From positions 186,001 to 250,000 of the forward strand of contig NZ_JAHDSZ010000001.1 in the NCBI RefSeq assembly GCF_018531145.1: DNA of 64,000 nt, in the 5' to 3' direction. Below, piece by piece: positions 22,423 through 47,111 of this stretch. The notes under the pieces are model-generated. The model was not told the origin of the DNA and searched no databases. It worked only from the letters and a program-made list of their open reading frames with translations. Each line of letters starts with the position of its first letter. Positions within the stretch are counted from its first letter, which is position 1. The stretch comes from Canibacter zhuwentaonis. Lineage in GTDB: Bacteria; Actinomycetota; Actinomycetes; Actinomycetales; Microbacteriaceae. The translations under genes and the position numbers were made by a program.

Positions 22423-22423
22423 G

Positions 22424-30515: not shown

Positions 30516-31727
30516 ATGGGCGCAGTTCATCAATCACTGCTTGTGGCGAGTATGAGCGCGCCCATTTTGCACATTGACATGGACTCGTTTTTTGTGTCGG
30601 TTGCAAGACTTGACAACCCCGGACTGCACGGTAAGCCGGTTGTTGTGGCAAACGACTCGCCGCGCTCTGTTGTGTCAAGCGCCAGTTATGAGGCGCGCCG
30701 TTTTGGGGTGCGTAGCGCAATGCCGGTCTCAACGGCAAAACAAATTTGTAAAAATCTGGTGTTTGCGGAGCCTAAAATGGATCGCTACGAAGAAATCTCA
30801 CAGCAGGTTTTTAAGATTTTTGAACGGTTTACGCCCAGGGTTGAAAAACTCGGGATAGACGAGGGGTTCTTAGACGTTGCGGGGGCTGTTAAGCACTTTG
30901 GCTTGCCCTACGAGATCGCCCAAAAAATCCGCGCGAGTGTGTGCGAAGAGCTTAAAATTCCGTGCTCTGTGGGGCTCGCTGGTGCAAAATTTGTTGCTAA
31001 ACTCGCCTCGGTTAAAGCTAAGCCGGATGGTATTTTTTGTGTCCCAGCCGAGCAGACCCTGCAGTTTTTGCATCCGCTAAAAATTGGTGAGATGCCCGGT
31101 GTTGGCTATAAAACGGCTGAAAAACTGCGCTCGCGCGCGCTTAACACGGTCGCCGATTTAGCAGCTCAGAGCGAAGAGTCGCTGGTGCGCCTGCTCGGGA
31201 AGGCACACGGAGCTCAGCTCTATCAAATGGCGCGCGGAATTGATCCGCGCCCCGTTATCCCCGAGCGTGAAATGAAGTCTTTGGGCGCTGAAAAAACGCT
31301 CAGCCAAAACACCAGCGACAGTGAGGTGCTGGCGCGTGAGCTTGCGCAGCTGGCTGCGAAGGTGACGCAGCGCTCTCGCGCCAACGGCACCGTCGCAGAA
31401 ACTGTGACCCTTACCCTGCGCACACCAGATTTGCGGCGGGTTAATAAAAGCCTCACGCTCAGCCAGCCCACAAACTCAACAAAAATTGTCTACGACACGG
31501 CGTTGCGGTTGCTGACGCAGGTGAAAGCGCGGCACGACGCGGTGCGCCTGATCGGGGTGCGGTTGTCTGGGTTGCAAGACGAGCACACGCTCGCGCCTGT
31601 TTTATGGGAGGATGAAAGCAGCGCTCGCTGGCGCAAAATCGATGCGATAGCGGATCAGATAATAAATAAACTAGGCGGGGTTAAGCTCGAATCCGCTGCT
31701 GCGATCAATCTGACGCGCGGTGAATGA
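30516..31727 (+). CDS. dinB: DNA polymerase IV (Y-family)
   Basis: A translesion polymerase. The catalytic residues lie in HIDMDSFFVSV and GIDEGFLDV; SASYEARRFGVRSAMP, SVGLAGAKFVAKLAS and the little-finger ending are typical. ATG 30516 follows gatB by six bases; ATG 30552 (MSAPILHIDMD) would be the tighter family start. The last ~26 codons, including the stop, lie in a 90-bp segment repeated at 43447-43536: the gene's 3' end is one boundary of the defence island. Before insertion it must have overlapped the pyridoxal kinase gene tail to tail. Confidence 0.93.
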   Translation: MGAVHQSLLVASMSAPILHIDMDSFFVSVARLDNPGLHGKPVVVANDSPRSVVSSASYEARRFGVRSAMPVSTAKQICKNLVFAEPKMDRYEEISQQVFKIFERFTPRVEKLGIDEGFLDVAGAVKHFGLPYEIAQKIRASVCEELKIPCSVGLAGAKFVAKLASVKAKPDGIFCVPAEQTLQFLHPLKIGEMPGVGYKTAEKLRSRALNTVADLAAQSEESLVRLLGKAHGAQLYQMARGIDPRPVIPEREMKSLGAEKTLSQNTSDSEVLARELAQLAAKVTQRSRANGTVAETVTLTLRTPDLRRVNKSLTLSQPTNSTKIVYDTALRLLTQVKARHDAVRLIGVRLSGLQDEHTLAPVLWEDESSARWRKIDAIADQIINKLGGVKLESAAAINLTRGE

Positions 31728-31738
31728 GCGTGCGGGAG
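31649..31738. repeat. Left island boundary: direct repeat of dinB 3' end (attL-like)
   Basis: This 90-bp segment recurs at 43447-43536. From 31666 to 31738 (73 bp) there is a single A/G difference; the first 17 bases carry five more differences, all transitions. It ends with the shared core GGTGAATGAGCGTGCGGGAG and then diverges from the other copies (AGTACACC here). It marks a site-specific insertion point in the overlapping 3' ends of dinB and pdxY. Confidence 0.9.
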
Positions 31739-31783
31739 AGTACACCAGAAGGGGGTCTAGGCAATTTGTGGTACTCGGTTCAG

Positions 31784-34700
31784 TTATTCAAACTCGGATG
31801 CGTCCCATTCACTGATATCCATGCCACCCCGTTTGAAGAACTCTATTAGGAGCATTTGTGCGGCCCAGTTACGGTCGATGGGTAGGAGGTCAAGGTTCTT
31901 CTTTGATTTCAGCCATTCGGCGAAGGTTTCGCTATCGACGGTTTCACGGATTTTGTCGAAGCGGCCGAATCGGTGCAGGTCTGCATCTGTGATGCCTTGC
32001 CCGCCGTAGGCTTTCAGCATCTCTTTCACCAGCAACGCATCGGCACCGGTTGCTGCGACAAGATCAGCAATCTGGCTGTCTTGCACGGCAGAAAGCTCTT
32101 CGTTGATGTAGTCGCGGAAAGACTTAGTAGCGTCTGGTGCCACGCGATCGGACTGGATCATGGCGATAACTCGTCTTGCTGCTTGCTGTTCTTTTTGACT
32201 CAAAGCCGCGTAATATTGCTGAACTTCGACAAGGAGGTCATCTATCTGAGCTTGGCTGGCTTGTTGGCTTGCAACGGCTGCGCGCCACTTGTCGAACTTC
32301 GCGTCAAGAGCCTCCATGTCTATACGCTGCGCATCATGCGCATAGGTCAGACAGGTCAAGTCGAGGGGTACCTGTGCGGCGGGTTCACCGCCACCGCCTG
32401 AACTTAGCTCGCTGTAACGGGTGAGCCATGTCTCGTAGATCTCCTTTGTCAGCAGTACTTCAATGTCGGGATCTCCTGGAGCTACTCCGGGATAGACTCG
32501 CTGATCCCACGTAAAACCTTGGATTCTGACTGTTTCGACAAGGCTTGCCAAATAGGAGAAAGAAACTGCGAATTTCTTACGATCCTCCAGGGCGTCAGGC
32601 AGACGGGAATAGTCTGGAATTCTAGCCTTAGTGAAGATAGCTTTGATGACTTCATATTCTCCATTGAGTGCTTGCAGGTTGGCCGGTAGCGGGTCAACGA
32701 ACACACCTCGGGCGTTTCCGCCAGCGTAGAGGTCAAAGGCGATCTCGAAATTATGGGTCATCGTTTTGGGTTTGCGGTAGTAGACGATGGTGCCTTGAGG
32801 CTTGATGAGCTTGTTGTAGATGCGGTTGGTGCGAGAAGCTGCCTGGACGAGGTCAGCGTATTCGAGGACCTTGTCCATGTAGAGCGTGCCGACATATTTG
32901 GAGTCATATCCGGTAAGCAACTGGTCTACTACGATGACAAGATCAAGCATCTTGTCTTGGCTGATGTGTTTGCGGCTGTCCTTGTGGGCAAGCCTGTCAG
33001 CAACGTCGGACTTGAAGTCAGCGATTTCTGCCCGATCAAAACTAACACCGAACATTGCTTCGTAATCGTCGAGGATCTCAAAGATACCTTCGGTTCTCAG
33101 CTGCTGGTTTCCGACGTTTTCGTCTGCATCAGAAAACACAGCGGTCACTTTGAGCTCTTGGTTCAATACAGGAGGTACGGCGGTATGGTCTGCTGCGGCT
33201 TTCTGTACTTGCTCGTTGTGGGCTTGGAACAGGCGGTAGTACTTAATGGCGTCTTCAATGCTGCTGGTTGCAAACATTGCATGTAGTTGTTCGCCTTGGG
33301 AACGGCGCAGCCAGTTCTTGAGGATCTCATCGACGACAGCCTGTTGGTATTCAGGGGTCTCCCAGGTGGCCGTCTTTGCTAGATCGTCAATCCCGGCGAT
33401 AAAGTGCCCTTTATCGTCACGGTAACTCACCCACGGAATCTTGTCAGGATCGCTGTACCGTTTAAAGATCGCGAGCTGCTTCTTGTCCTGGTATACCTCT
33501 GCGACCGTCTTGGCTCCAGCTTTCGCCAACGCCACCTTCTCACGCATCTCATCGTAGGGGTAGATATCTACCTGCTGATAGTCGAAACGCAACACTGCCC
33601 CATCGCGCAAACCGTGATAGATGCTGTAACGGTGAAGCTCAGAACCGAAAAGATCCGATGTTTGCGTGGACTTCTTCGCATTGGGTTCTTGAATCGGCGT
33701 ACCGGTGAAACCAAAGAACACCGCACGAGGGAAACACCGGCGAATTTTGGCATACATGTCACCAAACGTTGACCGATGCGCCTCATCGACAATGAACACG
33801 ATGCGCTGAGACTGAATTTTGTCGAAATCAGTCTTTGCGTAAAACTCATCCTGAGGATTCGTGAGCCGCCCGAGCTTGTGTAAAGACGTAATAATCAGGC
33901 GCTCGGTGCCGGTTTGAAGCTCCTTCGCGAGGAGGCGTGTTGAAGCAGGTCGAGCAATATCTGTAGCATCGCCAGCGAAATTACGGTATTCCATCTCAGA
34001 TTGGTCGCCGAGCTCGATGCGATCAAGAACGAACACGACTTTGTCGGCAATCTTGTCGCGTGCCAGCAGCATCGCGGTCTTAAACGAGGTCATCGTCTTA
34101 CCTGACCCCGTGGTATGCCAAATGTAGCCGCCCTTGTGATCGTGGATTCCACGATCCTCTAAAGGCACACGGTTCACATTTGACATCTGTGCCTCAACAG
34201 CAGCCACCGCATGCATCTGATACGGACGCAACACCTTCAGCTCTCCATCGCCCCCATCGGCGATCAGATAGTCACCGATCAGCGTGTGAGCAGCCGGGAT
34301 GGAAATAAAGTGGCGCGCGATATCCTGCCACGATTCGTAACGCTCGTTGTAGAAGTCGGTGTACTCGAAATGAAACATGTCGGTCAGATGACTGGTATCC
34401 CTTGGGCGGGCGAAGTAACGCATATCCGTTGGTGTCATACCGATGAACACCTGGAGGGCGTTGAACAGGCCACTGAAGATGTTCGACTGCAGGTACTTGT
34501 GGATCTGGCCGGTAGCTTCAGACACATCGTGCCCATGGTTTTTCAACTCAACATGGACAACAGGGATGCCCCAAATCAGGAGCATGAAATCCCCACGCCG
34601 ATCCTTGTCGCGCGGATGACTGCGAGGCATTACTGGCTGACGGGCAATCTGATAGGTAGAGTCTCCACCGGCAACCTCTTTGGGGTCAAAGATCGTCAAC

Positions 34701-35032
34701 GACACGATTTTGCCCTTATGCGCTTCGTCATCAGGGTGATCGCGGCGAATGGTGGTCTCTTTACCTTGTAAGAAGCGCTGGACATCTGCAGGAGTAGCCA
34801 GGGTGCTGATTTGCTCTACCAGCTGCTGCTTTTCACCCTCAGACAGCGGAACGTTGTTGAGTCTATGAGGGGTGTTGTTGTTCTTGAAAACAATTGAAGC
34901 CCAGTTATCCACCAGATCAGCAACACTCGGATGAACCAAGACACGCTTAGACCAGCCGTGGCGCTCAGTCAGCGCGGATACGACCGCGTCTTCAAACTCG
35001 AGTTCAGAACCAAAATGCACTAAATCAGTCAT
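31784..35032 (-). CDS. hsdR: Type I restriction enzyme subunit R (HsdR)
   Basis: HsdR is the motor and nuclease of the type I complex. The PD-(D/E)xK nuclease motif is intact (Asp148 in RRGDF, Glu162-Lys164 in VELK). The SF2 translocase follows: Walker A HTTGSGKT (306-313), DEAH (416-419), FTGTP (~442-446) and later helicase motifs (DQLLTGYDSKYVGTLYMDK, QAASRTNRIY). The C-terminal ~250 residues form the HsdM-binding region. At 1082 residues it is full length. Third gene of hsdM-hsdS-hsdR, 17 bases after hsdS. Confidence 0.95.
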   Translation of the reverse strand: MTDLVHFGSELEFEDAVVSALTERHGWSKRVLVHPSVADLVDNWASIVFKNNNTPHRLNNVPLSEGEKQQLVEQISTLATPADVQRFLQGKETTIRRDHPDDEAHKGKIVSLTIFDPKEVAGGDSTYQIARQPVMPRSHPRDKDRRGDFMLLIWGIPVVHVELKNHGHDVSEATGQIHKYLQSNIFSGLFNALQVFIGMTPTDMRYFARPRDTSHLTDMFHFEYTDFYNERYESWQDIARHFISIPAAHTLIGDYLIADGGDGELKVLRPYQMHAVAAVEAQMSNVNRVPLEDRGIHDHKGGYIWHTTGSGKTMTSFKTAMLLARDKIADKVVFVLDRIELGDQSEMEYRNFAGDATDIARPASTRLLAKELQTGTERLIITSLHKLGRLTNPQDEFYAKTDFDKIQSQRIVFIVDEAHRSTFGDMYAKIRRCFPRAVFFGFTGTPIQEPNAKKSTQTSDLFGSELHRYSIYHGLRDGAVLRFDYQQVDIYPYDEMREKVALAKAGAKTVAEVYQDKKQLAIFKRYSDPDKIPWVSYRDDKGHFIAGIDDLAKTATWETPEYQQAVVDEILKNWLRRSQGEQLHAMFATSSIEDAIKYYRLFQAHNEQVQKAAADHTAVPPVLNQELKVTAVFSDADENVGNQQLRTEGIFEILDDYEAMFGVSFDRAEIADFKSDVADRLAHKDSRKHISQDKMLDLVIVVDQLLTGYDSKYVGTLYMDKVLEYADLVQAASRTNRIYNKLIKPQGTIVYYRKPKTMTHNFEIAFDLYAGGNARGVFVDPLPANLQALNGEYEVIKAIFTKARIPDYSRLPDALEDRKKFAVSFSYLASLVETVRIQGFTWDQRVYPGVAPGDPDIEVLLTKEIYETWLTRYSELSSGGGGEPAAQVPLDLTCLTYAHDAQRIDMEALDAKFDKWRAAVASQQASQAQIDDLLVEVQQYYAALSQKEQQAARRVIAMIQSDRVAPDATKSFRDYINEELSAVQDSQIADLVAATGADALLVKEMLKAYGGQGITDADLHRFGRFDKIRETVDSETFAEWLKSKKNLDLLPIDRNWAAQMLLIEFFKRGGMDISEWDASEFE

Positions 35033-35049
35033 CGGAGTACCCCTTCGAA

Positions 35050-36315
35050 CTAAACGAACATCGACGCCAGGAACGCCGACTTCAAATGATGCAACTTTTC
35101 CAGCTTTTCCAGTTCGAAATTGATGAGAATGTCGAGCTCACGGAAATAATTACTAATGCCTTCTTGCTCAGATAGGGAAGGAATCAGGAGTAATAATCCC
35201 GACAGTGCTTCCTTGCTGACAGAAGTAACTTTAGTCCCTTGAGAAAAATGTACGATTTGGGAGTGAACTAACGCACTGTTCATAAGAACACCTAAGAATC
35301 CTTCTGCGCACTCTATCAAGGGGTGCAGTACGTATGTGTGAAGTCCGCCAAAAACAGGCAATTCGCCACGGATGCGTAGTTCCGCACACCGACCTACCGA
35401 TTCGTCTTCTGCTGTATCGGCCATAACGACATCACCGTTTAGCAGTTGTTTGCTGAATAATCTTGAGACCAACTCTGGGTCATTGATGAAAGGGAGTTTT
35501 TGCGAGCTGACATCAACTAGATTGGGTAGAGAAGTGAGGATGTCCCCGTAGTGAACGCTTAATGCATTTCCAGCTTTCTCATTGAGGTTCGCACGGGTCA
35601 CTGGGACCGATCTACCAAATTTGAAAAAGCTACTGAAATCCCACTTTTTCCACTCGTCTTGGAAGCCACTGAATCTGATCTCTGGCACGCGAGAGTCTCC
35701 TTGTGGGAACATCTTCGTGAGCATGGTGGTCTTGAGCTGCTTCAGCTTCTCGATCTTCTTCGCCGATGCGTCAAGCAGATCATCCAACTTATGGAACAAC
35801 GATCCAATCGCTTCCTGTTCTTTTAAAGAAGGAACAAAGAGGGGGAACGACTTTACTTTTTCGGCATTAAGATTTCTCTGTGTACCAGTGGAAATATATG
35901 GCTCCCACTCAAGCCCAAGTTCTGCGTTTTTTAAGCGTGCATAAATGAAATCACGGGTTCCCGCACTAGAGAAGACCATATTGTAAAATGCCTGACTTGT
36001 GGCAGCGTCTATGTCGAGAATTCCGACCTTACCCACACTTGCGTACATAGCGAGAGAAATAGATCCCTTAGGTGCTATCCACGCAGCGCTATTGTTTAGA
36101 CCCGCATCAGTAATGTGTTTAGCCGTACTACGAATGAAGCGATCCTTAATATCCGATATTCCTAAAAAAGGTATATGGCCGTTATAGTAGGAAGGATTTG
36201 TTGCTGTTGGCGTGCCACCCGAGCACCCAAGAGCAATCAAGTTTCCCAGTTGGCTTTGAATCCACTCCTCATGGAAGCCTTGGAAGCGTATCGCCGGAGC
36301 GTTATTCTGACTCAT
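35050..36315 (-). CDS. hsdS: Type I restriction enzyme specificity subunit S (HsdS)
   Basis: HsdS recognises the bipartite DNA target. Two target-recognition domains are present, each opened by the same motif (IRFQGFHEEW at residue ~9 and IRFSGFQDEW at ~215) and closed by a conserved helical spacer (PSLKEQEAIGSLFHKLDDLLD and PSLSEQEGISNYFRELDILI, followed by KIEKLKQLK / KLEKLHHLK). At 421 residues it is a complete two-domain subunit. The target sequence cannot be predicted. The start overlaps the hsdM stop (ATGA). Confidence 0.95.
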   Translation of the reverse strand: MSQNNAPAIRFQGFHEEWIQSQLGNLIALGCSGGTPTATNPSYYNGHIPFLGISDIKDRFIRSTAKHITDAGLNNSAAWIAPKGSISLAMYASVGKVGILDIDAATSQAFYNMVFSSAGTRDFIYARLKNAELGLEWEPYISTGTQRNLNAEKVKSFPLFVPSLKEQEAIGSLFHKLDDLLDASAKKIEKLKQLKTTMLTKMFPQGDSRVPEIRFSGFQDEWKKWDFSSFFKFGRSVPVTRANLNEKAGNALSVHYGDILTSLPNLVDVSSQKLPFINDPELVSRLFSKQLLNGDVVMADTAEDESVGRCAELRIRGELPVFGGLHTYVLHPLIECAEGFLGVLMNSALVHSQIVHFSQGTKVTSVSKEALSGLLLLIPSLSEQEGISNYFRELDILINFELEKLEKLHHLKSAFLASMFV

Positions 36316-39080
36316 TGTTGCTCTCCGAGGATCTTGGCGAGTTCGGTGATGCCTTCCATGTCTCGTTCGGAGCCGATGAGTTGCCCCATCATGCGCGAAA
36401 GATTCTGCTGTGCTGCTTGTGTTCTGTGGCCGATGTCGGAGAGGGTTGTGTTGTATTTTGCGTCAAGCTCTGAGATGGCCTCGATGAGTGTTTCGATGGT
36501 TTGATGCGGGACGGTGTTGATGTCGTCGAGTAGGCGATCGACCCATTTGACTTCGAGGAGACTACGGGCGGTGTTGTCATCGAGGTTCTCGATAATGTGC
36601 TTGGTGTCAAGGTGGATCTTGGCTTCTCGGGTTTTGATGTCCTTCTTGGCTGTTTTGACTTCTTCGAGCAGGTCGAGTGCTTCGATGAGGATCGGTTCGA
36701 GTGCGTCGTCTTCGAAATCTGTAGCGCGTTTTAGCTGGTCGATATAGGTGCGTACTGTCGTAGCGGTGTATGCGCCTGACTTGTCGGCCGTCATTGCTGC
36801 CCAGTTCACTTCTGGATGTAGCGTTACGAGAGACTTCCGTGCCGCTCCGCGTGTATCTATGTATTCTTCGAGCACTCCAATTTCGGGCGAGGTGATGTCT
36901 TTCATGAGCGAGCCGAGCCGGTTCTTCGCGTTGGTAGCGTTGAATGCATCCCCGGCGGCGTTAGTTACTGAGTTTTTTCCGGAGCCGAGTTGTTCTTCTG
37001 ACAGGGAGTCAAATAGTTCGCTTATTCGTTCTTCGGCTTGCGCTAGGCGTGTTTGAAGAGCTTCAAGGTCGCTGGAGTCTTCGGCCAGGAGTTCTTGTTG
37101 GACGAGCTGAAACGGGAGGACAGTGCCAAACCATCCTTCTTGAACTTCCTTTTCGACTCCTTTTACTTTCTTGATGACGTAGTTAGGCTCGACGCGGCGC
37201 ACTTGATCCCAGCCCTGCCTTTTGAGGACTTCTAGGTCTCTGCCGATTACTTTCCAGTGGTTGGCAAAGATTTGATATACGGAGTAGTCATCGATGATGG
37301 GTACTTGCTTGAGGTGCTGGAAGAGTTCTGTTCGTAGCGCTGCCTCGATGATGGTCATGTCCACGTCGGCGAGATGGTGAACGAGTCGAGTCTTTAGTGA
37401 TTGCGAATATCCGTTGAAAGCTGACGTAAAGCTGGCTTCGAACGAGGCAACAGATGGGTGTTGATGCACCGAATCGGCCAAGGAGTTGTTGGTCTTGATG
37501 TTCTCTTGCACGTGGGTGTGGGTCTCGGTTGTGGAATTGAAGATTTGTTCACGCAGCCCTGGCAAGGCATCCCAGTAGGTGGCGAGCGTGTCGATTTCTT
37601 TTTGTGGGATTCCACCAAACATGGTCGCGTAGATGTCCCACGTCTCGGCAGGATCTGACGAGTCGACATAGCGTGGAATGTTTAGGTTGTAGCCGTTTTC
37701 TCGGATTTCTGCTCGGCTAACGAGTCTGGAGAATTTGTCTTCTGTTCGCCGTTCGATAGCGGTGTCGACGATCTTTCGAACGTCACGTTCGCGCAGCTCG
37801 TTCTTCTTACCCGCTTTTTCAAAACCGCGTGAGGCATCGATGAAGAGAATGGAATCGTCTGAGCCGCGTTCTTTCTTGAGGATCATGACGATGGTGGCAA
37901 TGCCAGTCCCGTAGAAGATGTTGGCAGGCAGACCGATGATGGTTTCGATGTGGTTGCGGTCGATGAGTTGAGTGCGGATTGCTTCTTCTTCGCCGCCTCG
38001 GAAGAGTACGCCGTGAGGGAGAACGATGGCGAGAATCCCATCGCTCTTGAGGTGGTAGAGCTCGTGGAGCAAGAACGCATAGTCAGCTGTCTTTTCAGGT
38101 GCAAGCCCGTAGGCGAATCGTGGATCAGCGCCTAGCTTCGGGCGTTCCCACTCCGCAGAATACGGCGGGTTTGACACCACAGCGTCTACCAACAAGGTTT
38201 GATACACGCCAGTAATGGGGTCGATCATCGGCCAGTCTGCACCGAGCGAGTCGCCCTCGCGGGTGATGATGTTAGCTGGACGGATACCCCGCATAACCAG
38301 GTTCATTCTTGTTAGCGCATACGCAGCCTTCTTCAGCTCTTGAGCATAGTACTGAATCGAGTCAGGGTTGCCGCTGCGGCGGGAAATAGCGTCACCAATA
38401 TTGAGCAGTAGCGAAGCCGATCCAGATGTGGGGTCGTATACCTGAATGTCTCGCCGATCTTTCAGATGGTGACCCACGATTTCAGCCATCACCAAAGCGA
38501 CTTGATGGGGCGTGTAGAACTCACCAGCAGACTTGCCCGCGTTAGCCGCGAAATTAGCAATCAGATACTCATAGACGTACCCCAACACATCGTACCCTTG
38601 GCGACCATCAGTAGGAATCTCGCGGACGATACGGATTAGCTCACGCAGCTTTTTGGCTTGCGCAGTGGAATCAGTTCCCAGCTTTGGCACCGCCGAAGCC
38701 AGAGGGGTAAAGATCTCATGGAAGATGGATCGGTACTGCGGGTTGACCTGGGCATCAAAAGCGAGCGCTGCTTCGGTGATCCATGAAGGTTGAAGATCTG
38801 GAAGCTTCTTTTCCCACGTAGAGAACAAGTCGCTGTACTCGATGAAATACCCCAGCGAGGCTTGCGCCATAGCGACTCGGCGTGGTTTTTTAGAAGTAAT
38901 CTCAGATTCGAGTTGATCCTCGGGGATTTCATTTTTCAGGAAGAACTCAACTTCTCGGCCCGATAGAAACTTGTAGAACATCAAACTAAGAATTAGGTCT
39001 TTGTAGTCGTTCGCGTCCAAAGAGCCACGCATTTTGTTGGCAGCTTTCCAGATCTGAGCTGCGAGTTGTTGTTTATCCAT
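36312..39080 (-). CDS. hsdM: Type I modification subunit M (HsdM) with long C-terminal extension
   Basis: N6-adenine methyltransferase of the type I system. Residues 1-150 match the HsdM N-terminal domain; motif I is DPTSGSAS (~216-223) and motif IV NPPY (304-307). Typical HsdM proteins are ~500-550 residues; here about 400 further residues follow, rich in charged helices (LEALQTRLAQAEERISELFDSL, ITELAKILGEQQ), probably coiled coil. The extension reads through without a break, so it is a real long form. First gene of the operon; its promoter must lie in 39081-39240. Confidence 0.94.
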   Translation of the reverse strand: MDKQQLAAQIWKAANKMRGSLDANDYKDLILSLMFYKFLSGREVEFFLKNEIPEDQLESEITSKKPRRVAMAQASLGYFIEYSDLFSTWEKKLPDLQPSWITEAALAFDAQVNPQYRSIFHEIFTPLASAVPKLGTDSTAQAKKLRELIRIVREIPTDGRQGYDVLGYVYEYLIANFAANAGKSAGEFYTPHQVALVMAEIVGHHLKDRRDIQVYDPTSGSASLLLNIGDAISRRSGNPDSIQYYAQELKKAAYALTRMNLVMRGIRPANIITREGDSLGADWPMIDPITGVYQTLLVDAVVSNPPYSAEWERPKLGADPRFAYGLAPEKTADYAFLLHELYHLKSDGILAIVLPHGVLFRGGEEEAIRTQLIDRNHIETIIGLPANIFYGTGIATIVMILKKERGSDDSILFIDASRGFEKAGKKNELRERDVRKIVDTAIERRTEDKFSRLVSRAEIRENGYNLNIPRYVDSSDPAETWDIYATMFGGIPQKEIDTLATYWDALPGLREQIFNSTTETHTHVQENIKTNNSLADSVHQHPSVASFEASFTSAFNGYSQSLKTRLVHHLADVDMTIIEAALRTELFQHLKQVPIIDDYSVYQIFANHWKVIGRDLEVLKRQGWDQVRRVEPNYVIKKVKGVEKEVQEGWFGTVLPFQLVQQELLAEDSSDLEALQTRLAQAEERISELFDSLSEEQLGSGKNSVTNAAGDAFNATNAKNRLGSLMKDITSPEIGVLEEYIDTRGAARKSLVTLHPEVNWAAMTADKSGAYTATTVRTYIDQLKRATDFEDDALEPILIEALDLLEEVKTAKKDIKTREAKIHLDTKHIIENLDDNTARSLLEVKWVDRLLDDINTVPHQTIETLIEAISELDAKYNTTLSDIGHRTQAAQQNLSRMMGQLIGSERDMEGITELAKILGEQQ

Positions 39081-39241
39081 GAGGGGTTTCGTCTTTCGTA
39101 TTGTCGGGCAAGTTCAAAAACAACTATGCATCCATGCTCGGGTTGTCTCTTCTTCACCGAGAGGATCAGTAGTGACGACGAAGCCAAGGGCTTAGGGGTG
39201 AATCCACATCTCTATAGTACCTGGAAAACGTCGTTAAAGAG

Positions 39242-39276
39242 TCTGGCGCGCGGTGAATGAGCGTGCGGGAGCAACA
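39242..39276. repeat. Internal third copy of the island boundary core
   Basis: 35 bp identical, except for one base, to 43507-43541 at the right boundary, including the bases GCAACA that belong to the pdxY side and are absent from the left copy. On the minus strand it still encodes the pdxY C-terminal motif VAPARSFTARQ. It lies exactly between the type I and type II systems. Confidence 0.85.
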
Positions 39277-39419
39277 GCGGGTAAGAGCCCTGCGATTGTC
39301 GTCTGGGTGGATGATTTCTACTGAGCGAATCTGGTTACCATGCACGTGAACTGCGAACTGCTGGAATGGGGTTATGCTATGGGCTCGGAGGGGATGGGGG
39401 GAGTGGTAGAGGGCAGTTT

Positions 39420-39644
39420 TCAAAGGTGATGCGCTTTATTAAGAACATCAGCACGTAAACCAGCTGATGCTGAGAGTATTTCAATTCCTAGAAGGTAGCC
39501 TTCGCTATCTATATCAATCGTCACTTGTGTTTGACCGTTTGGCGTTTCTATGAGAGAAACCTGTTGAGCTGATTCTTTCGGTGCTAAGTCTTTACCAAAG
39601 GTAATGTACGCGGCATCAGCTTCGCTATCGTAAGTCATTTTCAC
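39420..39644 (-). CDS. DUF2283 family protein (antitoxin-like)
   Basis: A 74-residue protein with the DUF2283 pattern: MTYDSEADAAYITFG start, a central beta-rich VSLIETPNGQ and the IDIDSEGYLLGIEIL ending. Members often lie next to small DUF4258 proteins in what look like toxin-antitoxin pairs. Here the upstream partner appears to be a relic (39649-39792). The start is GTG 39644 or ATG 39638; an AAAGGG site precedes. The function is not established. Confidence 0.75.
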   Translation of the reverse strand: MKMTYDSEADAAYITFGKDLAPKESAQQVSLIETPNGQTQVTIDIDSEGYLLGIEILSASAGLRADVLNKAHHL

Positions 39645-39648
39645 GAGA

Positions 39649-39792
39649 CTACCCTTTCGTAACTGTAATGATATTGCCGGTTTTGTTAGCCACTATCACG
39701 CGAATCTTGTTTCCCCCTTTTTTCTTCATCATGTCAGCTTGTTTTGGTGGTTTCCAATGTGCCCGATGTGAAAGGGGAGTTTCTGTCTCTGT
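39649..39792 (-). pseudogene. 3' remnant of a small gene, possibly DUF4258-type
   Basis: An open frame without a start codon in its first part ends five bases before DUF2283. It reads HRAHWKPPKQADMM, then KIRVIVANKTGNIITVTKG. The ending resembles the last strand of DUF4258 proteins, the usual neighbours of DUF2283. The 5' part is missing, so it is probably a decayed toxin-like gene. Tentative. Confidence 0.35.
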
Positions 39793-39880
39793 TTAGAGTA
39801 TAGTAAAAAGTTTCACATTTATTGCTGGCTATCTAACGCCGACAAATGGCGGGGTGTACTCTGATATTCGTCAGGGTACG

Positions 39881-40186
39881 CTAGATAACCAACAGCCCCC
39901 GCTCGTCATACACCGATTCGGCAGGTTCGCTCCAGTTTCGGATCGTGCGATCCAAGGCAATGATGAATGCGACGATGCCGTCGATTTCCTCTGTGCTCTT
40001 GGATTTGTAGGGTTTGATGTTTCCGCTGGAGAGGTCTACTTGCTTCTCTTGGTTGGCTTGGCTTGCGCCAGCGCTGAGCCAGCAACACTCTTTACCGCTG
40101 AGCCATACCGGCCATCGCTCAAGATCTTGCTTGCCTTTGACGCAACCTTCAGGGTCATCTGCTTCTGATTTCGTCATGCTCTTCAC
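39881..40186 (-). pseudogene. Phage terminase large-subunit C-terminal remnant
   Basis: The last ~40 codons read STEEIDGIVAFIIALDRTI and SVYDERGLLVI, the typical end of actinophage terminase large subunits. The first ~60 codons of the frame (rich in Lys, Gln, Trp and Cys) do not match and may be a frameshifted or unrelated stretch. A complete terminase would be over 400 residues, so this is a fragment. It shows that a prophage once used this site or contributed to the island. Confidence 0.5.
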
Positions 40187-40268
40187 ATTATCTGCTGTAG
40201 CGTTTGTGCACTTTTTGTGCGCATATACATCGTTTTCTATAAAATAAGTTAGATGGAAGAAAAGTATT

Positions 40269-40296
40269 TGCGCTACAGAATCTATATTCTAAAATT
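40269..40296 (+). promoter_or_regulatory. Promoter of the small ORF-HTH unit
   Basis: TTGCGC (40269-40274) and TAAAAT (40291-40296) with a 16-base spacer, 28 bases upstream of the 57-residue ORF. Confidence 0.45.
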
Positions 40297-40324
40297 GGAT
40301 CTTTAGCACCGCAGACGAGAGAAG

Positions 40325-40498
40325 ATGAACATGGCAGAAAACCCGACGACATATGCGCGAATGCGCGGTCTCGATGAAGGTATCCAGGAACACGAAAAGG
40401 TGAATGTTATTAGATTTATGAAAGAAAAAGACAGAGGCCGGTATGGCTATTTGCTGGATGTTTACGATGTTGCCGAGGGTCAGCACTATGGTCGATAA
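40325..40498 (+). CDS. 57-residue protein of unknown function preceding the HTH gene
   Basis: A short ORF with ATG and GAGAGAAG upstream. It encodes a charged soluble protein (TTYARMRGLDEGIQEHEKV, then RFMKEKDRGRYGYLLDVYDV). Its last 11 bases overlap the start of the HTH gene in another frame, a coupling typical of controller operons. No family recognised. It could be a small phage or restriction-associated protein. Confidence 0.55.
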   Translation: MNMAENPTTYARMRGLDEGIQEHEKVNVIRFMKEKDRGRYGYLLDVYDVAEGQHYGR

Positions 40499-40718
40499 CA
40501 ACAAACGGGTGTCAATTAGTTACAAACCACTTTGGAAATTGCTTATTGACAAGAATATGAAGAAACAGGATCTGCGTCGACTGACAGGTCTATCCGGTGC
40601 GACTATTGCAAAGTTGGGGCGCAATGAGAATGTTAATACGGACATTCTAGTTCGTATATGTGATGCTCTCGATTGCCAGCTTGTGGATGTATGCACAGTC
40701 GAACACTCCTGTATCTAG
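40488..40718 (+). CDS. Cro/C1-type HTH regulator of the type II system
   Basis: A 76-residue helix-turn-helix protein (HTH_26/Xre type): KPLWKLLIDKNMKKQDLRRL, LSGATIAKLGRNENVNTDIL, then RICDALDCQLVDVC. ATG 40488 is preferred over the longer in-frame 40443 because the latter lies inside the upstream small ORF. It stands 110 bases upstream of the methyltransferase gene on the same strand, the position of controller proteins in type II systems, so control of the M and R genes is likely but inferred. Confidence 0.8.
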   Translation: MVDNNKRVSISYKPLWKLLIDKNMKKQDLRRLTGLSGATIAKLGRNENVNTDILVRICDALDCQLVDVCTVEHSCI

Positions 40719-40828
40719 AATTGCACATTTTAATAATGCCGATGAGGAATATTTTGCTTTTATTACTTAACTTTTCTTGTACTAAATGAACATCTATAGG
40801 TGACTGAAAATGAAGGAGAATTGAGCGC

Positions 40829-42379
40829 GTGAAAAATGATTATGGGCAGTACTTCACACCAATGCATATAGCAAGGATGATGGTTGGGTGTATTACTGCC
40901 GCCAAAGAAGCGCCGATACTTGAACCTAGTGCAGGAGAGGGCGTCTTTTTGGATGCGTTGTATGAAGCCGGATTTTCTAACTACATCGGTGTTGAAATCG
41001 ACCTCCGGCTTCAGCAGAAAAGCAACCATAAGGTTGAGCACGCCTCTTTTGTTTCGTGGAAGCCGTCAGAAAAATACGCTGGAATCATAGGAAATCCACC
41101 ATATATCAGATGGAAACATCTGGAGCCAGAATTGCAATTAGAACTAAAGCGGCATCACTTATGGGGCAAGCTGTTCAACCCTTTGTCCGATTATCTCAGC
41201 GTATTTATTGCGAACAGTATCGAGCACCTGATGCCCAGAGGTGAACTCGTTTTTATTACTCCGTCTTTTTGGATGCACACTCTGCACTCTGCACCTTTAA
41301 GAGATTGGATTTTAACGCAAGGCGTTGTTACTGAGATTATTGATTTCGGCGAAGCGAAAGTTTTCGATGGCGTTTCAAGTGCTATCGTAATTTTTAAATT
41401 TGTAAAAGACTCGGCACAATCTACGATTAGCTATTGGAAGTATATTGGTGGAAGAAAAGTCAGTGCGGATGTCGAGCTTGATAGTCAAAAACACTTTCAG
41501 AGCTTGACTATTCCCTCTTTTCAGCCTGGAAAGCACTGGACGCTTGCTGACGCCAAAACCCAAAGCGTGGTGGAAGAAGTTGAAAAGGTCGCCATGAGAA
41601 CCTCGGATGAGTATCTTTTCGACATTCCTCAAATCGCTCGTCTCGGCGATTATGTCAGTATCGCTAATGGTATGGTTTCAGGATTAGATAAAGCTTTCCG
41701 CTTCGATCACGCAGAAGATTTCAAACTTACCGCAGACGAACAAAAGTGTCTTATGAAGGTTGCCAAAGCAAAGGATTTAGATTCTTTGAGACCCAAAGCT
41801 TTCTCTGCGTATATTGATATACCAGTGGGGCTGTCGGAAAAGGAGGTTCAGATCCGGTATCCAAATTTTGTTACTCAATTAATGCCGTACAAGAAGCAGC
41901 TTCTCAGCCGTTACTCTTATGGGCGCGAACTCCCTATATGGGAATGGGCTTTTAGGAGATCTGAAAAGTTTCTTGTATCAAATACCCCAAAGATTTTCGT
42001 TCCATGTAAGGAACGCATGACGAACAGAAGAACTGCGCGTTTCGCACTGGTGGATGGCGGAATTGTAGCGACCCAAGATGTGACAGCGCTTGCACCATTA
42101 GACACCACTCGAGAGTCGATTGAATACATCCTCGCCTATCTATCTACCATTCAGGTTTCTGAGTGGATTAGAGTCCGAGGTCTCATGAAGGGAGGGATCG
42201 CAGAGTTCTCCGAAAAACCTTTAAGCGACATACCATTCCGCTTCATCGATTGGAATGATCCGATCGAAGTCGAATTTCACAATCGCATTACCGAGGAGGT
42301 ATCTGCTTATCTCAAAAGCACGATGAACTCAGAAGAATTCATTAACGCGATTAGTAAAGAGTTTAAGGATTTCAATTAA
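40829..42379 (+). CDS. Type II N6-adenine DNA methyltransferase (gamma class, HincII-system partner)
   Basis: A 516-residue amino-methyltransferase. It opens with the gamma-class signature GQYFTP, motif I is LEPSAGEGVF (~31-40) and motif IV is NPPY (89-92). The C-terminal ~280 residues form the target-recognition part. Paired with a HincII-like endonuclease ending 21 bases downstream on the opposite strand, it should protect GTYRAC sites by adenine methylation; the specificity is inferred from the nuclease. GTG start after AAGGAG. Confidence 0.88.
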   Translation: MKNDYGQYFTPMHIARMMVGCITAAKEAPILEPSAGEGVFLDALYEAGFSNYIGVEIDLRLQQKSNHKVEHASFVSWKPSEKYAGIIGNPPYIRWKHLEPELQLELKRHHLWGKLFNPLSDYLSVFIANSIEHLMPRGELVFITPSFWMHTLHSAPLRDWILTQGVVTEIIDFGEAKVFDGVSSAIVIFKFVKDSAQSTISYWKYIGGRKVSADVELDSQKHFQSLTIPSFQPGKHWTLADAKTQSVVEEVEKVAMRTSDEYLFDIPQIARLGDYVSIANGMVSGLDKAFRFDHAEDFKLTADEQKCLMKVAKAKDLDSLRPKAFSAYIDIPVGLSEKEVQIRYPNFVTQLMPYKKQLLSRYSYGRELPIWEWAFRRSEKFLVSNTPKIFVPCKERMTNRRTARFALVDGGIVATQDVTALAPLDTTRESIEYILAYLSTIQVSEWIRVRGLMKGGIAEFSEKPLSDIPFRFIDWNDPIEVEFHNRITEEVSAYLKSTMNSEEFINAISKEFKDFN

Positions 42380-42400
42380 CTCGAAGACGCTCTGTGCTCC

Positions 42401-43207
42401 CTAATATTTATGCAAAATGGCAAGGACTTCGTCAAGTCGTTTTTGCTGTTTTGCTATTCTAGATGCGAGCGACTTCGAATAACAATGTTCCAGGAAGTCT
42501 CTAAACCAGTCGCGTTTAGATCTTTGATAGTTTTGTTTCACATCAAATGGATGGAATTGAATCTGGAGTGCTGCAGCCCAATTGATATAAAGCTCTGTAG
42601 GGGCGATCTTGAATAAATCAACGACACACCACTCGTCAGCTTTGAGGATCTTCACCCCATTTCTCTCTGTCGGGAAGAAACGAACACCCAAGTAATAAAT
42701 ATCGAATTTAGGCTCTGCGCCGCTCTCTAGTACTAACTTTGCCGCTTGTGACAATTTGTTTGCCGAAATAATGTTCGGAGGCTGGGAGGGCTTAGAGGCG
42801 TTCTGAGATTTAATATCAATCAGAGTTACTTCAGGGGATTCGAATTTTAGCTCACCGTCAGAAAACAAGATACTCTCAGCGGTATCATTTTGCTTCTCCT
42901 CAAAGGGATTTGAAGGTTTCCACTTTTCCGTAGCGCTCTTACTTCGCGAAACCAGATAATCTAGTGCAGGCTCACCAAAAGTCGCCGATTCTGGTTTTTT
43001 GCCAGTAGCTACAAAGTCAGAAAGAGCAGCATTGAGAGCTTCATAATGCCTAAACGCTCTTCCTGGTGCATGAGAAACGAGCTCTTTGTGTGCTAAACCT
43101 TCGAATACAAGTCCTCCTGCGTGCCCCGACAGTTGCCCGCTAGGGCGAGGGGCTTCTGCATGGGTAAGTTTTGTTGCAATATCTTGTAACAGTTGTGGCA
43201 CATTCAT
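42401..43207 (-). CDS. HincII/HindII-family type II restriction endonuclease
   Basis: A 268-residue nuclease closely resembling HincII along its length: GQLSGHAGG near residue 25, LVSRSKSATEKW, FEEKQNDTAE, LIDIK, PPNIISANKL, and APTELYINWAAALQIQFH. The HincII active-site residues are conserved as Asp108 (in QNDTA), Asp131 and Lys133 (IDIK), with a longer loop between them than in HincII. HincII cuts GTYRAC to blunt ends; the same specificity is likely. A TATATA element ends only two or three bases before the ATG, and no Shine-Dalgarno is visible. Convergent with its methyltransferase gene. Confidence 0.85.
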   Translation of the reverse strand: MNVPQLLQDIATKLTHAEAPRPSGQLSGHAGGLVFEGLAHKELVSHAPGRAFRHYEALNAALSDFVATGKKPESATFGEPALDYLVSRSKSATEKWKPSNPFEEKQNDTAESILFSDGELKFESPEVTLIDIKSQNASKPSQPPNIISANKLSQAAKLVLESGAEPKFDIYYLGVRFFPTERNGVKILKADEWCVVDLFKIAPTELYINWAAALQIQFHPFDVKQNYQRSKRDWFRDFLEHCYSKSLASRIAKQQKRLDEVLAILHKY

Positions 43208-43446
43208 GTTATATAGGCTACATATGAAGAGAGCTCGGGTCTAGAGCGCAACATTTCGAAGACTAACGAGCAGGACATTGCGCGAGCTGACACCTGGGAT
43301 GATCTCAAGTTCTTCGCACAGCCGGTCAGCAATGCTCTGTGATATCGAGGCCGTCGGAGTACATCACCGGTGTCCAGCGCCTCGGCAAGTCTAAGGTGAC
43401 AGTTTCGCCCAAACCTTCCGAAGCGCCGAGACCCAACTACTTCGTA
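43208..43446 (+). pseudogene. Coding remnants at the right edge of the island
   Basis: No intact gene. One frame ends ERNISKTNEQDIARADTWDD then a stop at about 43342; another ends LGKSKVTVSPKPSEAPRPNY, then FVSGSGGR with a stop that falls inside the boundary repeat. Both look like C-terminal pieces of former genes. I do not recognise either. The second suggests that the element-borne copy of the repeat was once the end of a gene. Confidence 0.35.
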
Positions 43447-43536
43447 AGCGGATCAGGTGGCAGATAAACTAGGCGGGGTTAAGCTCGGATCCGCTGCTGC
43501 GATCAATCTGACGCGCGGTGAATGAGCGTGCGGGAG
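43447..43536. repeat. Right island boundary: direct repeat (attR-like)
   Basis: Second full copy of the 31649-31738 segment, 11,798 bases away, here running on into intact pdxY. The first 17 bases hold five transition differences from the left copy and the other 73 bases hold one. Confidence 0.9.
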
Positions 43537-44350
43537 CAACATACGCTTCTTGAGCTTCAATAAGCAGCAGCTCTTTAGAGCCCGCGCTGATTGTTTTAGC
43601 GAGCAGCTCAAAAACACTGGCCGTTGTCAGCTCTAGCGCCTGACGCAGAGACTTGCCGCTGCTTAAGTGAGCGGCAAACAGCGCCTGGGTCACATCGCCC
43701 GAGCCGTTAATTTTACCGGGCAGGCGGGGAGTGCTGATAAGCCACGCCTCGCTCTGGTTTACCGCGAGCATTTCGAGCGTCTGGCTCTGCGCATCGGCGC
43801 GATTTACGCTTGTTACCAGCACCGTTTGCGGGCCGATCCGCTGAATTTCTTTAATTGCGTCGAACGTGTCGGCGAGCGTGTTTAGCTCGCGCCCGGTTAA
43901 AAAGCCAAGCTCAAACTGGTTGGGAGTAATAATATCTGCGTGCTGAATAACTCTGTCGCGGATTAGCTCCTGCACCTCGGGGCTTACAAAACAGCCCGAG
44001 TTTTCGTTGCCTAGTACCGGGTCGCAGGAGTAAACCGCGCGCGGATTGCGGGCTTTGGTTTTTGCGACCGTGTCAAGAATTGCGTCGCCGATGCTTGATC
44101 CGCCCTGGTAGCCGGATATTATTAGCTCGGTGTCTGCCAGCGCGCCGCGCTTATCGATGCCCGCAACAATATCGCGCACCTGCTCTCCGTTAAACATAAC
44201 ACCCTGCCAGTCGCCATAGCCGGTGTGGTTTGAGAAGCACACGGTTGCAACGGGCATCACCTCGTGCCCGAGGCGTTGCAGCGGAAACACTGCGGCAGAA
44301 TTACCCACGTGACCGTAGCTTACAGCAGACTGAATAGATAGTATACGCAT
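43469..44350 (-). CDS. pdxY: Pyridoxal kinase PdxY
   Basis: Pyridoxal kinase phosphorylates pyridoxal for B6 salvage. Ribokinase-fold features are MRILSIQSAVSYGHVGNSAA, the DPVLGN segment, ITPNQFELGFLTG and the anion-hole/catalytic GKINGSGDVTQALFAA. The native family ending (AQEAYVAPARSFTARQI) is encoded inside the right boundary repeat on the strand opposite the dinB end, followed by about 11 further residues to the stop. So island insertion left both genes with usable 3' ends. Divergent from gluQRS with a 41-base gap. Confidence 0.93.
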   Translation of the reverse strand: MRILSIQSAVSYGHVGNSAAVFPLQRLGHEVMPVATVCFSNHTGYGDWQGVMFNGEQVRDIVAGIDKRGALADTELIISGYQGGSSIGDAILDTVAKTKARNPRAVYSCDPVLGNENSGCFVSPEVQELIRDRVIQHADIITPNQFELGFLTGRELNTLADTFDAIKEIQRIGPQTVLVTSVNRADAQSQTLEMLAVNQSEAWLISTPRLPGKINGSGDVTQALFAAHLSSGKSLRQALELTTASVFELLAKTISAGSKELLLIEAQEAYVAPARSFTARQIDRSSGSELNPA

Positions 44351-44391
44351 ATCTAGATTCTGCCACAGGATGCTTAATTTTTGCCGGTAGG

Positions 44392-45360
44392 ATGAATTGC
44401 ATGGTTGCCAACGAACCTGCGAGCCATGAAGTTTTAGGCGCGCACAAGCCGGGCGCGGGGCGGTATGCGCCGAGCCCGTCGGGAGACTTACACCTTGGCA
44501 ATTTGCGCACCGCGCTGGTGGCGTTTTTGGCGGCGCGCGGCACTTGTCGCGATTTTCTGCTGCGCATCGACGATATTGACAGGGCGCGAGATAAGGGTTT
44601 TGCAGAGCGGCAGCTGGCGGATCTGCGCAGGCTCGGGATTGTGTGGGAGCTGCCGGTTATGAAGCAGTCAGAGCGCGATCACGCCTATTATGTGGCGTTG
44701 CAAACGCTGTGTGAGCAGGATCGCGTTTACGAGTGTGTGTGCTCGCGCAAAGACATTTTGACCGCGCCAACCGCGCCGCACGCGCCTCCGGGAGCGTATC
44801 CGGGAATTTGTCGCACTCTCAGCACGGCAGCTTTGCAGCGCGCCAAGGCTAAAATTGCGCCCAGGCTGCCAGCGCTGCGCCTAAAAGTTGCGGCCTCTGA
44901 GCGGCAGCTGTGCTTCACCGATCTGATTAAGGGCAGGGTTTGCGCGCCGATTGATGATTTTGTGCTGCGCCGTGGCGATGGTGTGTACGCCTATAATCTG
45001 GCGACTGTTGTTGATGACGCGGCCGCTGGCGTGGATCAGGTTGTGCGCGGTGACGATCTGGCCAGCAGCACGCCTCGCCAAATACTGCTTGCGCGGCTGC
45101 TAAATGCGCCGGCGCCAAGCTACGCCCATGTGCCGTTGGTGGTTAATGCTCGGGGGGTGAGGCTCGCAAAAAGAGACGGCGCGGTGACACTGGCGCAGCT
45201 GCGGGAGCAGGGAGTCGGTACGGCTGAGGTGCTGCAAATGTTGCTGTTGTCGCTGGGAATGGCAGCGGATCCGCTCGCCACAGACGCACTAAAAGCTGCC
45301 GCCTGTGATTTTGCTTTTCACAAACTAAGCAGAGACCCCTTTGTTTTTAAGGGTTTTTAG
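44392..45360 (+). CDS. gluQRS: Glutamyl-Q tRNA(Asp) synthetase
   Basis: GluQRS is a truncated glutamyl-tRNA synthetase that attaches glutamate to queuosine of tRNA(Asp). It has the catalytic domain only: RYAPSPSGDLHLGNLRTAL (HIGH-like), a zinc site CVCSRKDI with YPGIC, the DDFVLRRGDGVYAYNLATVVDD stretch and a KMSKS-like RLAKRDG, without an anticodon-binding domain. ATG start with GGTAGG upstream. Its last four bases overlap the end of the SGNH gene. Confidence 0.93.
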   Translation: MNCMVANEPASHEVLGAHKPGAGRYAPSPSGDLHLGNLRTALVAFLAARGTCRDFLLRIDDIDRARDKGFAERQLADLRRLGIVWELPVMKQSERDHAYYVALQTLCEQDRVYECVCSRKDILTAPTAPHAPPGAYPGICRTLSTAALQRAKAKIAPRLPALRLKVAASERQLCFTDLIKGRVCAPIDDFVLRRGDGVYAYNLATVVDDAAAGVDQVVRGDDLASSTPRQILLARLLNAPAPSYAHVPLVVNARGVRLAKRDGAVTLAQLREQGVGTAEVLQMLLLSLGMAADPLATDALKAAACDFAFHKLSRDPFVFKGF

Positions 45361-46394: not shown

Positions 46395-46450
46395 CCAAAA
46401 ATACTACCGGCAATTTGACCGGCTCAGCTGTGCGTGGCTAGACTTTTAAG

Positions 46451-46829
46451 GTGAGTAATGCAGTGAAACACGGTGTTCTGGCAGGTGCATCCGTTAATTC
46501 TTCGGTCAGGCTTGTGGTGCCTGATTTTGCGCGCGGTCTTGCGCTGCTGGGAATTGCGCTTGCGAACTTACCAACGGGCTGGCTAATAGAGCGGGTGAGT
46601 GACCCAAATTTTATTCTTCCCGCAAGGCACTGGTGGCACCGTTAGTAACACCGGTGTTTGGGGCTTTTTAGATCATTTGAACGTTATTTTTAGCGCCCTG
46701 TTTGTGTATGTGCGTGGTCTGCTAATGTTTGCAACCCTGCTTGGTTTTGGGGTTGGAATTATCGCCTTAAACCTGTTGCGTAAGGGTATTTCGCTGCGTG
46801 GTGCGCGCCGCATTTTGGCGCGCAGATAG
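46451..46829 (+). pseudogene. DUF418-type membrane protein gene, frameshifted and truncated
   Basis: The first frame reads RLVVPDFARGLALLGIALANL (the DUF418/YeiB-like N-terminus) and ends at 46645; the same protein continues in another frame as PQGTGGTVSNTGVWG, then DHLNVIFSALFVYVRGLLMF, and ends at LRGARRILARR (46829). Full members are ~350-400 residues. One frameshift around 46600-46640 and loss of the 3' two thirds show that this is a decayed gene. The 46830-47060 stretch shows no further recognisable piece. Confidence 0.8.
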
Positions 46830-47060
46830 CTGTTTTTGATGAGGATAAAACCACTCCGATGCAATGGGATTCATTAACCTGTACGGGCTGCCGACTGCTG
46901 TTGTGACGCAAATGCAACTCTGTGATCCGGCAATCCGCAACGGTTAAGGCTGATATTGCAAGAGTGCAAGCAGCGCTGCGCAAACTGCTTTCTTAGCCTG
47001 AGCACGTTGGCTGTGAGGCTACGGCACGCGCAGCATAGGATCATCGAGTATGCGCTAAAC

Positions 47061-47066
47061 TATAAT
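47061..47066 (+). promoter_or_regulatory. -10 element of the pyrimidine operon
   Basis: A perfect TATAAT seven bases upstream of the proposed leader stem. It predicts a transcript start near 47073. No good -35 is visible. Confidence 0.5.
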
Positions 47067-47072
47067 TACGCA

Positions 47073-47111
47073 CTTCTTTTAATGTGTCGTCCCGTGAGGC
47101 GAAGAAAGGAG
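47073..47111 (+). promoter_or_regulatory. PyrR-binding RNA element controlling pyrR translation
   Basis: CTTCTTT (47073-47079) can pair with AAAGGAG (47105-47111), which is the pyrR Shine-Dalgarno. The intervening loop contains GTCCCGTGAGGC (47089-47100), matching the PyrR recognition pattern UCCnGnGAGG known from Bacillus and mycobacterial pyr leaders. UMP-bound PyrR should hold this stem and block translation, as described for mycobacterial PyrR. Confidence 0.7.

What the first reader, a model, noticed from the sequence alone, without database searches (positions are those of the whole stretch)
39242..39276. Third boundary copy splits the island into two tandem defence cassettes
A 35-bp copy of the right boundary (one mismatch) lies exactly between the type I operon and the type II system. 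All three copies share a core ending GGTGAATGAGCGTGCGGGAG. The arrangement repeat - type I R-M - repeat - type II R-M - repeat suggests stepwise accretion of cassettes at one site, each carrying its own copy of the site, without an encoded integrase. This is the best candidate in the window for an undescribed mobile defence-cassette system.
Basis: partly seen in the sequence, partly recalled or inferred. Interest (0 to 1): 0.85.

Follow-up and report, generated by a model that had tools for sequence, protein, structure and literature searches.

The report
Restriction systems stacked by target duplication
Two bacterial DNA-cutting defence systems sit one after the other between partial copies of the same host sequence; the copies look like host DNA duplicated when each system inserted, a process already described for such systems, rather than the marks of a new mobile element.

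Summary
A 30-bp core lies in direct orientation at 31709, 39242 and 43507, around a type I R-M operon and a HincII-like type II R-M system; its 20-bp centre has no fourth copy in the assembly.

The repeat is host DNA: the overlapping 3' ends of convergent dinB and pdxY. The outer copies share 90 bp, the middle one only 30-35 bp. This fits two successive insertions with target duplication: HincII-like cassette first (about 95 bp), type I cassette into the left duplicate later (25-30 bp). No recombinase gene was recognised in the island; the genome searches found only an XerD, an XerC-like protein and no serine resolvase.

A distant HincII-like cassette (G479, another family) sits between 109-bp copies of a host gene's 3' end; related genomes carry that stretch once.

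R-M insertion with about 100-bp target duplications is in print (PMC3874152). So this is a well-layered new member of a known kind, at the joint of a chromosomal rearrangement. No empty or single-cassette version of the window's own locus was available, and some details leave other histories open.

The parts
30516..31727 (+). dinB (DNA polymerase IV), host gene; its last 79 bp form most of repeat R1
   Evidence: Pfam IMS/IMS_C; gatB-dinB order in 3 of 4 genus relatives, G001, G002, G004; in G003 no dinB in the 2.4 kb after gatB
31649..31738 (+). R1: left outer repeat, 90 bp, 93% identical to 43447-43536
31739..39241 (.). type I R-M insert (7503 bp, GC 0.511), read as the second insertion
31784..35032 (-). 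hsdR
   Evidence: HSDR_N, SWI2_SNF2; TIGR00348 above cut-off
35050..36315 (-). hsdS
   Evidence: Methylase_S; PADLOC Specificity_I
36312..39080 (-). hsdM
   Evidence: N6_Mtase, HsdM_N; TIGR00497 above cut-off
39242..39276 (+). R2: middle repeat (the finding), 35 bp; 97% to R3 over 35 bp, 97% to R1 over 30 bp
39277..43446 (.). HincII-like R-M insert (4170 bp, GC 0.45), read as the first insertion
39420..39644 (-). small DUF2283 gene in the HincII-like insert
   Evidence: PF10049
40443..40718 (+). small HTH (HTH_26) regulator-like gene
   Evidence: PF13443
40829..42379 (+). adenine-N6 type II methyltransferase (NPPY in the translation)
   Evidence: Eco57I/N6_Mtase; PADLOC MTase_II
42401..43207 (-). 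HincII-like restriction endonuclease
   Evidence: PF09226 E 1e-49; PDB 1kc6 E 2e-44
43447..43541 (+). R3: right outer repeat, 95 bp = dinB tail + core + CAACA, running into pdxY
43469..44350 (-). pdxY (pyridoxal kinase), host gene, 293 aa; its last residues are read from the dinB-derived stretch
   Evidence: NF004398 above cut-off; C-termini at 26 pdxY loci

Best explanation
Two R-M cassettes were captured one after the other at the joint where the 3' ends of dinB and pdxY meet, each insertion duplicating its target. Inferred step 1: the HincII-like cassette (39277-43446) inserted and duplicated about 95 bp, giving dinB-[95 bp]-HincII cassette-[95 bp]-pdxY. Inferred step 2: the type I cassette (31739-39241) inserted inside the left duplicate and duplicated 25-30 bp, splitting it into R1 and R2. 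The probable chemistry (inferred, untested) is capture of a linear R-M fragment at a staggered break, with the overhangs filled in. The duplications leave both host genes with complete reading frames. Shown: the repeats, their host-gene origin, no dedicated recombinase found by two Pfam searches of the assembly, and a single-copy site in relatives for a distant HincII-like cassette with a 109-bp duplication. Not shown: an empty or single-cassette version of this locus.
For: The model rebuilds the flanks without gaps: R1 (90 bp) plus the CAACA of R2 aligns to the 95 bp of R3 with 6 mismatches, and R1/R2 share 30 bp with 1 mismatch. With two target-duplicating insertions only this order fits, since the dinB tail is at R1 and R3 but not R2. 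The repeats are host coding sequence: dinB follows gatB in 3 of 4 genus relatives, and the core encodes a PdxY C-terminus like those of relatives. Phage_integrase finds two proteins in the assembly: an XerD (above the NCBIfam cut-off) beside CTP synthase, and one whose best model is XerC (below its cut-off) beside dprA; Resolvase finds none. In G479 the other HincII-like system (1 further hit in 396 genomes of the order) lies between 109-bp repeats, 97% identical, starting at a host gene's stop codon. In G1166, G205 and G1165 that stretch occurs once beside the same right flank; the left flank is continuous with it in the G1166 and G205 alignments. Print precedent: PMC3874152 and PMC3031569 (passages), PMC4978471 (section 20).
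Against: No conspecific genome was available, so the empty site here is unproven. All six R1/R3 differences are transitions with A/T in R1 and G/C in R3, five within 7 bp, and R3 by eye looks the more dinB-like; simple drift of a spare copy predicts the reverse. R2, read in the pdxY frame, ends at exactly the usual PdxY length (283 aa), which hints at another history. Of 19 type I loci tested in the family 1 had a flanking repeat (25 bp, exact), against 4 of 22 control loci (24-27 bp, 88-92%). Three HincII-like loci in viral contigs had no flanking repeat over 23 bp. In G479, the last 60 bp before the repeat match G1166 but not G205 or G1165.
Confidence: 0.66

Rival explanations
1. Site-specific cassettes: the 30-bp core is an attachment site recognised by a recombinase acting in trans, and each cassette integrates by recombination at the core.
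For: Common 30-bp core in direct orientation at every boundary. R2 x R3 excision would restore a 283-aa PdxY, the length at 20 of 26 loci read. Homology at the G479 cassette ends exactly at a stop codon, as integrase islands often show (the comparison is recalled).
Against: The two Phage_integrase proteins of the assembly are XerD and XerC-like, and Resolvase gives no hit. The core is host coding sequence. It has 0 exact hits in viral contigs, and a 161-bp query around R1 matched only the own genome of 5 in the genus. The G479 target is a different sequence.
Confidence: 0.12
2. Homologous import: a donor segment or circle carrying hsdRSM, a native pdxY tail (R2) and the HincII cassette next to a different dinB-tail allele (R3) recombined into the locus through the 90-bp dinB tail.
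For: R3's dinB tail (ADQVADKLGG) resembles C. oris (ADQIAEKYG) more than R1's (ADQIINKLGG) does (by eye). R2 encodes ...FTARQTL* at the usual PdxY stop position. The block pdxY...dinB is rearranged relative to C. oris. A dprA gene is present.
Against: Needs several unobserved intermediates. Residue 282 in R2 is T, while all 23 of the 26 loci with a 283- or 289-aa PdxY have V, I or L as last but one residue. Two nested target duplications explain the same sequence more simply.
Confidence: 0.17
3. Assembly artefact or chance repeat.
For: Draft assembly of 28 contigs.
Against: Repeats of at most 95 bp are short; expected chance matches 0.01; the three boundaries have different flanks.
Confidence: 0.03

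Closest known systems
R-M insertion with long target duplication (Nobusato et al. 2000, known to me only through citing papers; PMC3874152, PMC3031569, PMC4978471)
   Same: R-M genes between direct repeats on the order of 100 bp that are host target sequence; no transposase; linked to genome rearrangement
   Different: Here two insertions appear nested so that repeat lengths record the order; actinobacterial host; one cassette is type I, which PMC3874152 calls less mobile than type II
H. pylori RM-B beside RM-A (PMC4978471, section 20 read)
   Same: One R-M system suggested to have inserted into another R-M cluster with long target duplication at one locus
   Different: There the host locus is itself an R-M cluster; here the site is the 3' ends of two housekeeping genes
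Integrase-borne genomic islands at gene 3' ends (recalled)
   Same: Direct repeats at the 3' end of a host gene that keep the gene intact
   Different: No integrase recognised in the island; the two Phage_integrase proteins found in the assembly are XerD and XerC-like
HincII/HindII R-M (PDB 1kc6)
   Same: Endonuclease homologous over most of its length (residues 5-246 of 267), adenine methyltransferase alongside
   Different: Divergent sequence; recognition sequence untested

Membership tests
R-M insertion with long target duplication | R-M genes flanked by direct repeats of roughly 100 bp | tested here: met
   90/95 bp around the island, 30-35 bp at the inner boundary
R-M insertion with long target duplication | Repeat is host sequence present once in genomes without the insertion | tested here: inconclusive
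   Host origin shown. Single-copy site shown for the G479 relative system, not for the window: no conspecific genome
R-M insertion with long target duplication | No transposase or integrase at the locus | tested here: met
   None among the island proteins searched (small ORFs other than 39881-40186 were not searched); assembly holds only XerD and XerC-like Phage_integrase proteins and no Resolvase
R-M insertion with long target duplication | Association with genome rearrangement | tested here: met
   Island sits at the joint of a permuted 13-kb block relative to C. oris
Integrase-dependent genomic island | Encodes or has access to a dedicated site-specific recombinase | tested here: not met
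   a recombinase of another family, or one since lost, is not excluded
IS-flanked composite transposon | Flanking IS copies | tested here: not met
   The boundary repeats are 30-95 bp of host coding sequence; transposases were not searched genome-wide
HincII-type II R-M | HincII-family endonuclease with the D-x-K catalytic segment | tested here: met
   PF09226 E 1e-49; LIDIK aligned with LLDVK of 1kc6; catalytic role of that segment recalled
HincII-type II R-M | Cuts GTYRAC (recalled) | not testable with these tools
   needs enzyme assay or methylome
Type I R-M | hsdR, hsdM and hsdS side by side on one strand | tested here: met

The most novel reading that the evidence does not exclude
HincII-family R-M systems move by themselves: their own cutting of a genome that lacks their methylation makes or exploits staggered breaks into which the R-M genes are captured with duplication of about 100 bp of a gene's 3' end, and the duplicated stretch then serves as a landing pad for further defence cassettes. 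Two HincII-like systems in different families show 95- and 109-bp duplications at unrelated targets. Against it: for another R-M system (PaeR7I) essentially no insertions appeared in an IS-free E. coli host (PMC3031569, passage).
Probability: 0.2. Interest if true: 0.75.

Novelty: new member of a known kind. Interest (0 to 1): 0.48.

Why it matters
How R-M genes move without a transposase or integrase remains unclear although long target duplications have been described. This locus seems to keep the layers of two such events in readable order, and G479 with its relatives gives a before-and-after comparison for the same endonuclease family, so the mechanism could be tested with one enzyme family. 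It also corrects the idea that the repeat is a mobile-element site: a repeat flanking defence genes can be duplicated host DNA.

Tried and rejected
Element-borne site in phages or plasmids: no megablast match of 31600-44400 in plasmids or phages, no exact core in IMG/VR, no protein match of the window's HincII-like enzyme in plasmids or phages or of the G479 enzyme in plasmids.

Type I first, then HincII: rejected, because the dinB tail would then lie left of R2, and it lies left of R3.

General rule for all R-M: 19 type I loci, chosen by me from the 95 other genomes with an HsdR match (two of the stretches cut short by contig ends), gave 1 with a flanking repeat of at least 24 bp and 88% (25 bp, exact); controls, the 22 of 24 other pdxY loci long enough, gave 4. 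Long flanking repeats are not a general feature of type I loci in this family.

More HincII-like loci: none but the own one in 396 genomes of the phylum with the Pfam model, which also rang in 0 of 14 control genomes; 3 in viral contigs, without flanking repeats over 23 bp.

Locating a former neighbour of dinB elsewhere in the genome gave no match, and the tool notes that an empty answer shows nothing. Terminal inverted repeats of the inserts: no exact 7-bp matches within 60 bp of the ends.

Full report
OBSERVATION. The 20-bp core occurs three times in the window, exactly, and no fourth time in the assembly with up to 3 mismatches. R1 is 31649-31738, R2 39242-39276, R3 43447-43541. R1 and R3 share 90 bp (93%), R2 and R3 35 bp (97%), R1 and R2 30 bp (97%). 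Within the 144 kb of this contig that I compared with itself, R1/R3 is the best repeat pair lying more than 1 kb apart.

WHAT THE REPEAT IS. R1 is the last 79 bp of dinB plus 11 bp. R3 overlaps the 3' end of pdxY. The core, read on the minus strand, encodes APARSFTAR, which lines up with the C-termini of PdxY in relatives. dinB follows gatB in 3 of 4 genus relatives; in G003 the 2.4 kb after gatB holds no dinB. So the 'site' is host coding sequence. The window comes from a relative of Canibacter oris: G001, of the same genus, has a contig of the same length as the C. oris DSM 27064 record.

THE CARGO. Between R1 and R2 lie hsdR, hsdS and hsdM. Between R2 and R3 lie a DUF2283 gene, an HTH gene, an adenine methyltransferase and a HincII-like endonuclease. 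GC is 0.511 and 0.45 against 0.565 and 0.556 in the flanks. No recombinase was recognised among the island proteins searched. Over the assembly, Pfam Phage_integrase finds two proteins and Resolvase none. One is XerD above the NCBIfam cut-off, beside CTP synthase; the other has XerC as best model, below its cut-off, beside dprA.

READING THE LAYERS. If the HincII-like cassette went in first with a 95-bp duplication, the left copy read R1 plus CAACA; R1+CAACA aligns to R3 over 95 bp with 6 mismatches. If the type I cassette then went into that left copy with a 25-30 bp duplication, R1 and R2 result, with 1 mismatch in 30. The reverse order would put the dinB tail beside R2, where it is not. dinB keeps an open frame of 403 aa. 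pdxY keeps one of 293 aa, against 283 aa at 20 of 26 loci read.

A SECOND CASE. Among 396 genomes of the order, one other carries this endonuclease: G479, another family, 38% identity. Its cassette lies between 109-bp direct repeats, 97% identical, which begin at the stop codon of a 145-aa host ORF without a Pfam match. The methyltransferase and endonuclease are the only ORFs over 90 aa between the repeats. Of 34 other genomes of that genus searched with 5 kb of DNA, 17 gave some match; three (G1166, G1165, G205) match both sides of the cassette, and the other 14 only short pieces of the query. In G1166 and G205 the left flank runs through a single copy of the 109 bp into the right flank. In G1165 a single copy joins the right flank, and the 0.2 kb to its left is diverged. 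The 60 bp directly before the repeat resemble G479 only in G1166. The two G479 copies are 97% identical to each other and about 84-86% to the relatives' single copy, so the duplication is of G479's own lineage.

HOW GENERAL. Nineteen type I loci of the family gave one flanking repeat (25 bp, exact), against 4 of 22 control loci (24-27 bp, 88-92%). Three HincII-like loci in viral contigs had none over 23 bp. The pattern is thus two of two HincII-like loci found in the order, not a rule for R-M at large.

REARRANGEMENT. In C. oris pdxY-gluQ-MFS-lipase-helicase-ligA-gatCAB-dinB form one 13-kb block (gene names here partly by eye). In the window the same genes, without the MFS gene, run helicase-ligA-gatCAB-dinB, then the island, then pdxY-gluQ-lipase, on the same strands. 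At 14 of 26 pdxY loci read (C. oris and 13 Leucobacter) gluQ, lipase and helicase follow pdxY in the C. oris order; the other 12 do not show all three within the 10 kb or less held on that side. In G002 and G004 pdxY has no gluQ nearby. I therefore take the window's order as the derived one. The island sits exactly at the new joint. Whether the joint came before the insertions or with them is unknown.

RESULTS AGAINST. All six R1/R3 differences are transitions with A/T in R1, and R3 looks the more typical dinB tail. R2 read as pdxY ends at the usual length, although with T at residue 282, where all 23 loci of 283 or 289 aa have V, I or L as last but one residue. The usual length leaves room for import of a donor segment by homologous recombination, and so does the odd pattern of differences.

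KNOWN KINDS. PMC3874152 (passages seen) states that some R-M systems insert with long and variable target duplications on the order of 100 bp, that movement is often associated with rearrangements, and that type I and III systems look less mobile than type II. PMC3031569 (passages seen) says the same of insertions and shows R-M movement in E. coli, mostly at IS1 or IS5; in an IS-free host it found essentially none. PMC4978471 (section 20 read) suggests one H. pylori R-M cluster entered another with long target duplication. The primary papers of 2000 and 2010 were not read (one search failed for a DOI I recalled for the latter). In the listings of my searches and the passages seen I met no report on HincII-like systems inserting this way or on stacked duplications of this kind; that is a statement about those searches only.

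VERDICT. Ordinary in kind, unusually legible in detail. Interest 0.48.

Noticed in passing
window 22811-46394 against C. oris contig 106613-119844: A 13-kb housekeeping block is permuted (pdxY-gluQ-lipase moved from before helicase to after dinB, same strands), with the R-M island at the joint.
   Followed up: partly
window 31659-31690 against 43457-43488: All six differences between R1 and R3 are transitions with A/T in R1, five within 7 bp; the spare copy looks more ancestral than the working gene.
   Followed up: partly
   Followed up: yes
window about 46440-47080: Stretch right of the lipase gene reads like a decayed membrane-protein (DUF418-like, by eye) gene with stops in all three forward frames; not searched against families.
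   Followed up: partly
L125 1059-6484 (IMG/VR contig): HincII-like methyltransferase and endonuclease downstream of a 598-aa ORF that by eye looks like a serine recombinase (no NCBIfam match at 1e-10).
   Followed up: partly
L064 4959-5228: Array of tandem repeats spaced in multiples of 15 bp in the neighbouring stretch of the same contig; repeats with about 0.7-0.8 kb spacing follow at L064 about 7.9-9.3 kb.
   Followed up: no
window 22415-22608: Two 51-bp direct repeats (90%) in the gap upstream of the helicase gene.
   Followed up: no
L033 (G003): In G003 gatB is followed by a convergent 227-aa ORF and a DedA-like gene (by eye), with no dinB between, so dinB has been lost or gained at this spot in the genus.
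   Followed up: no
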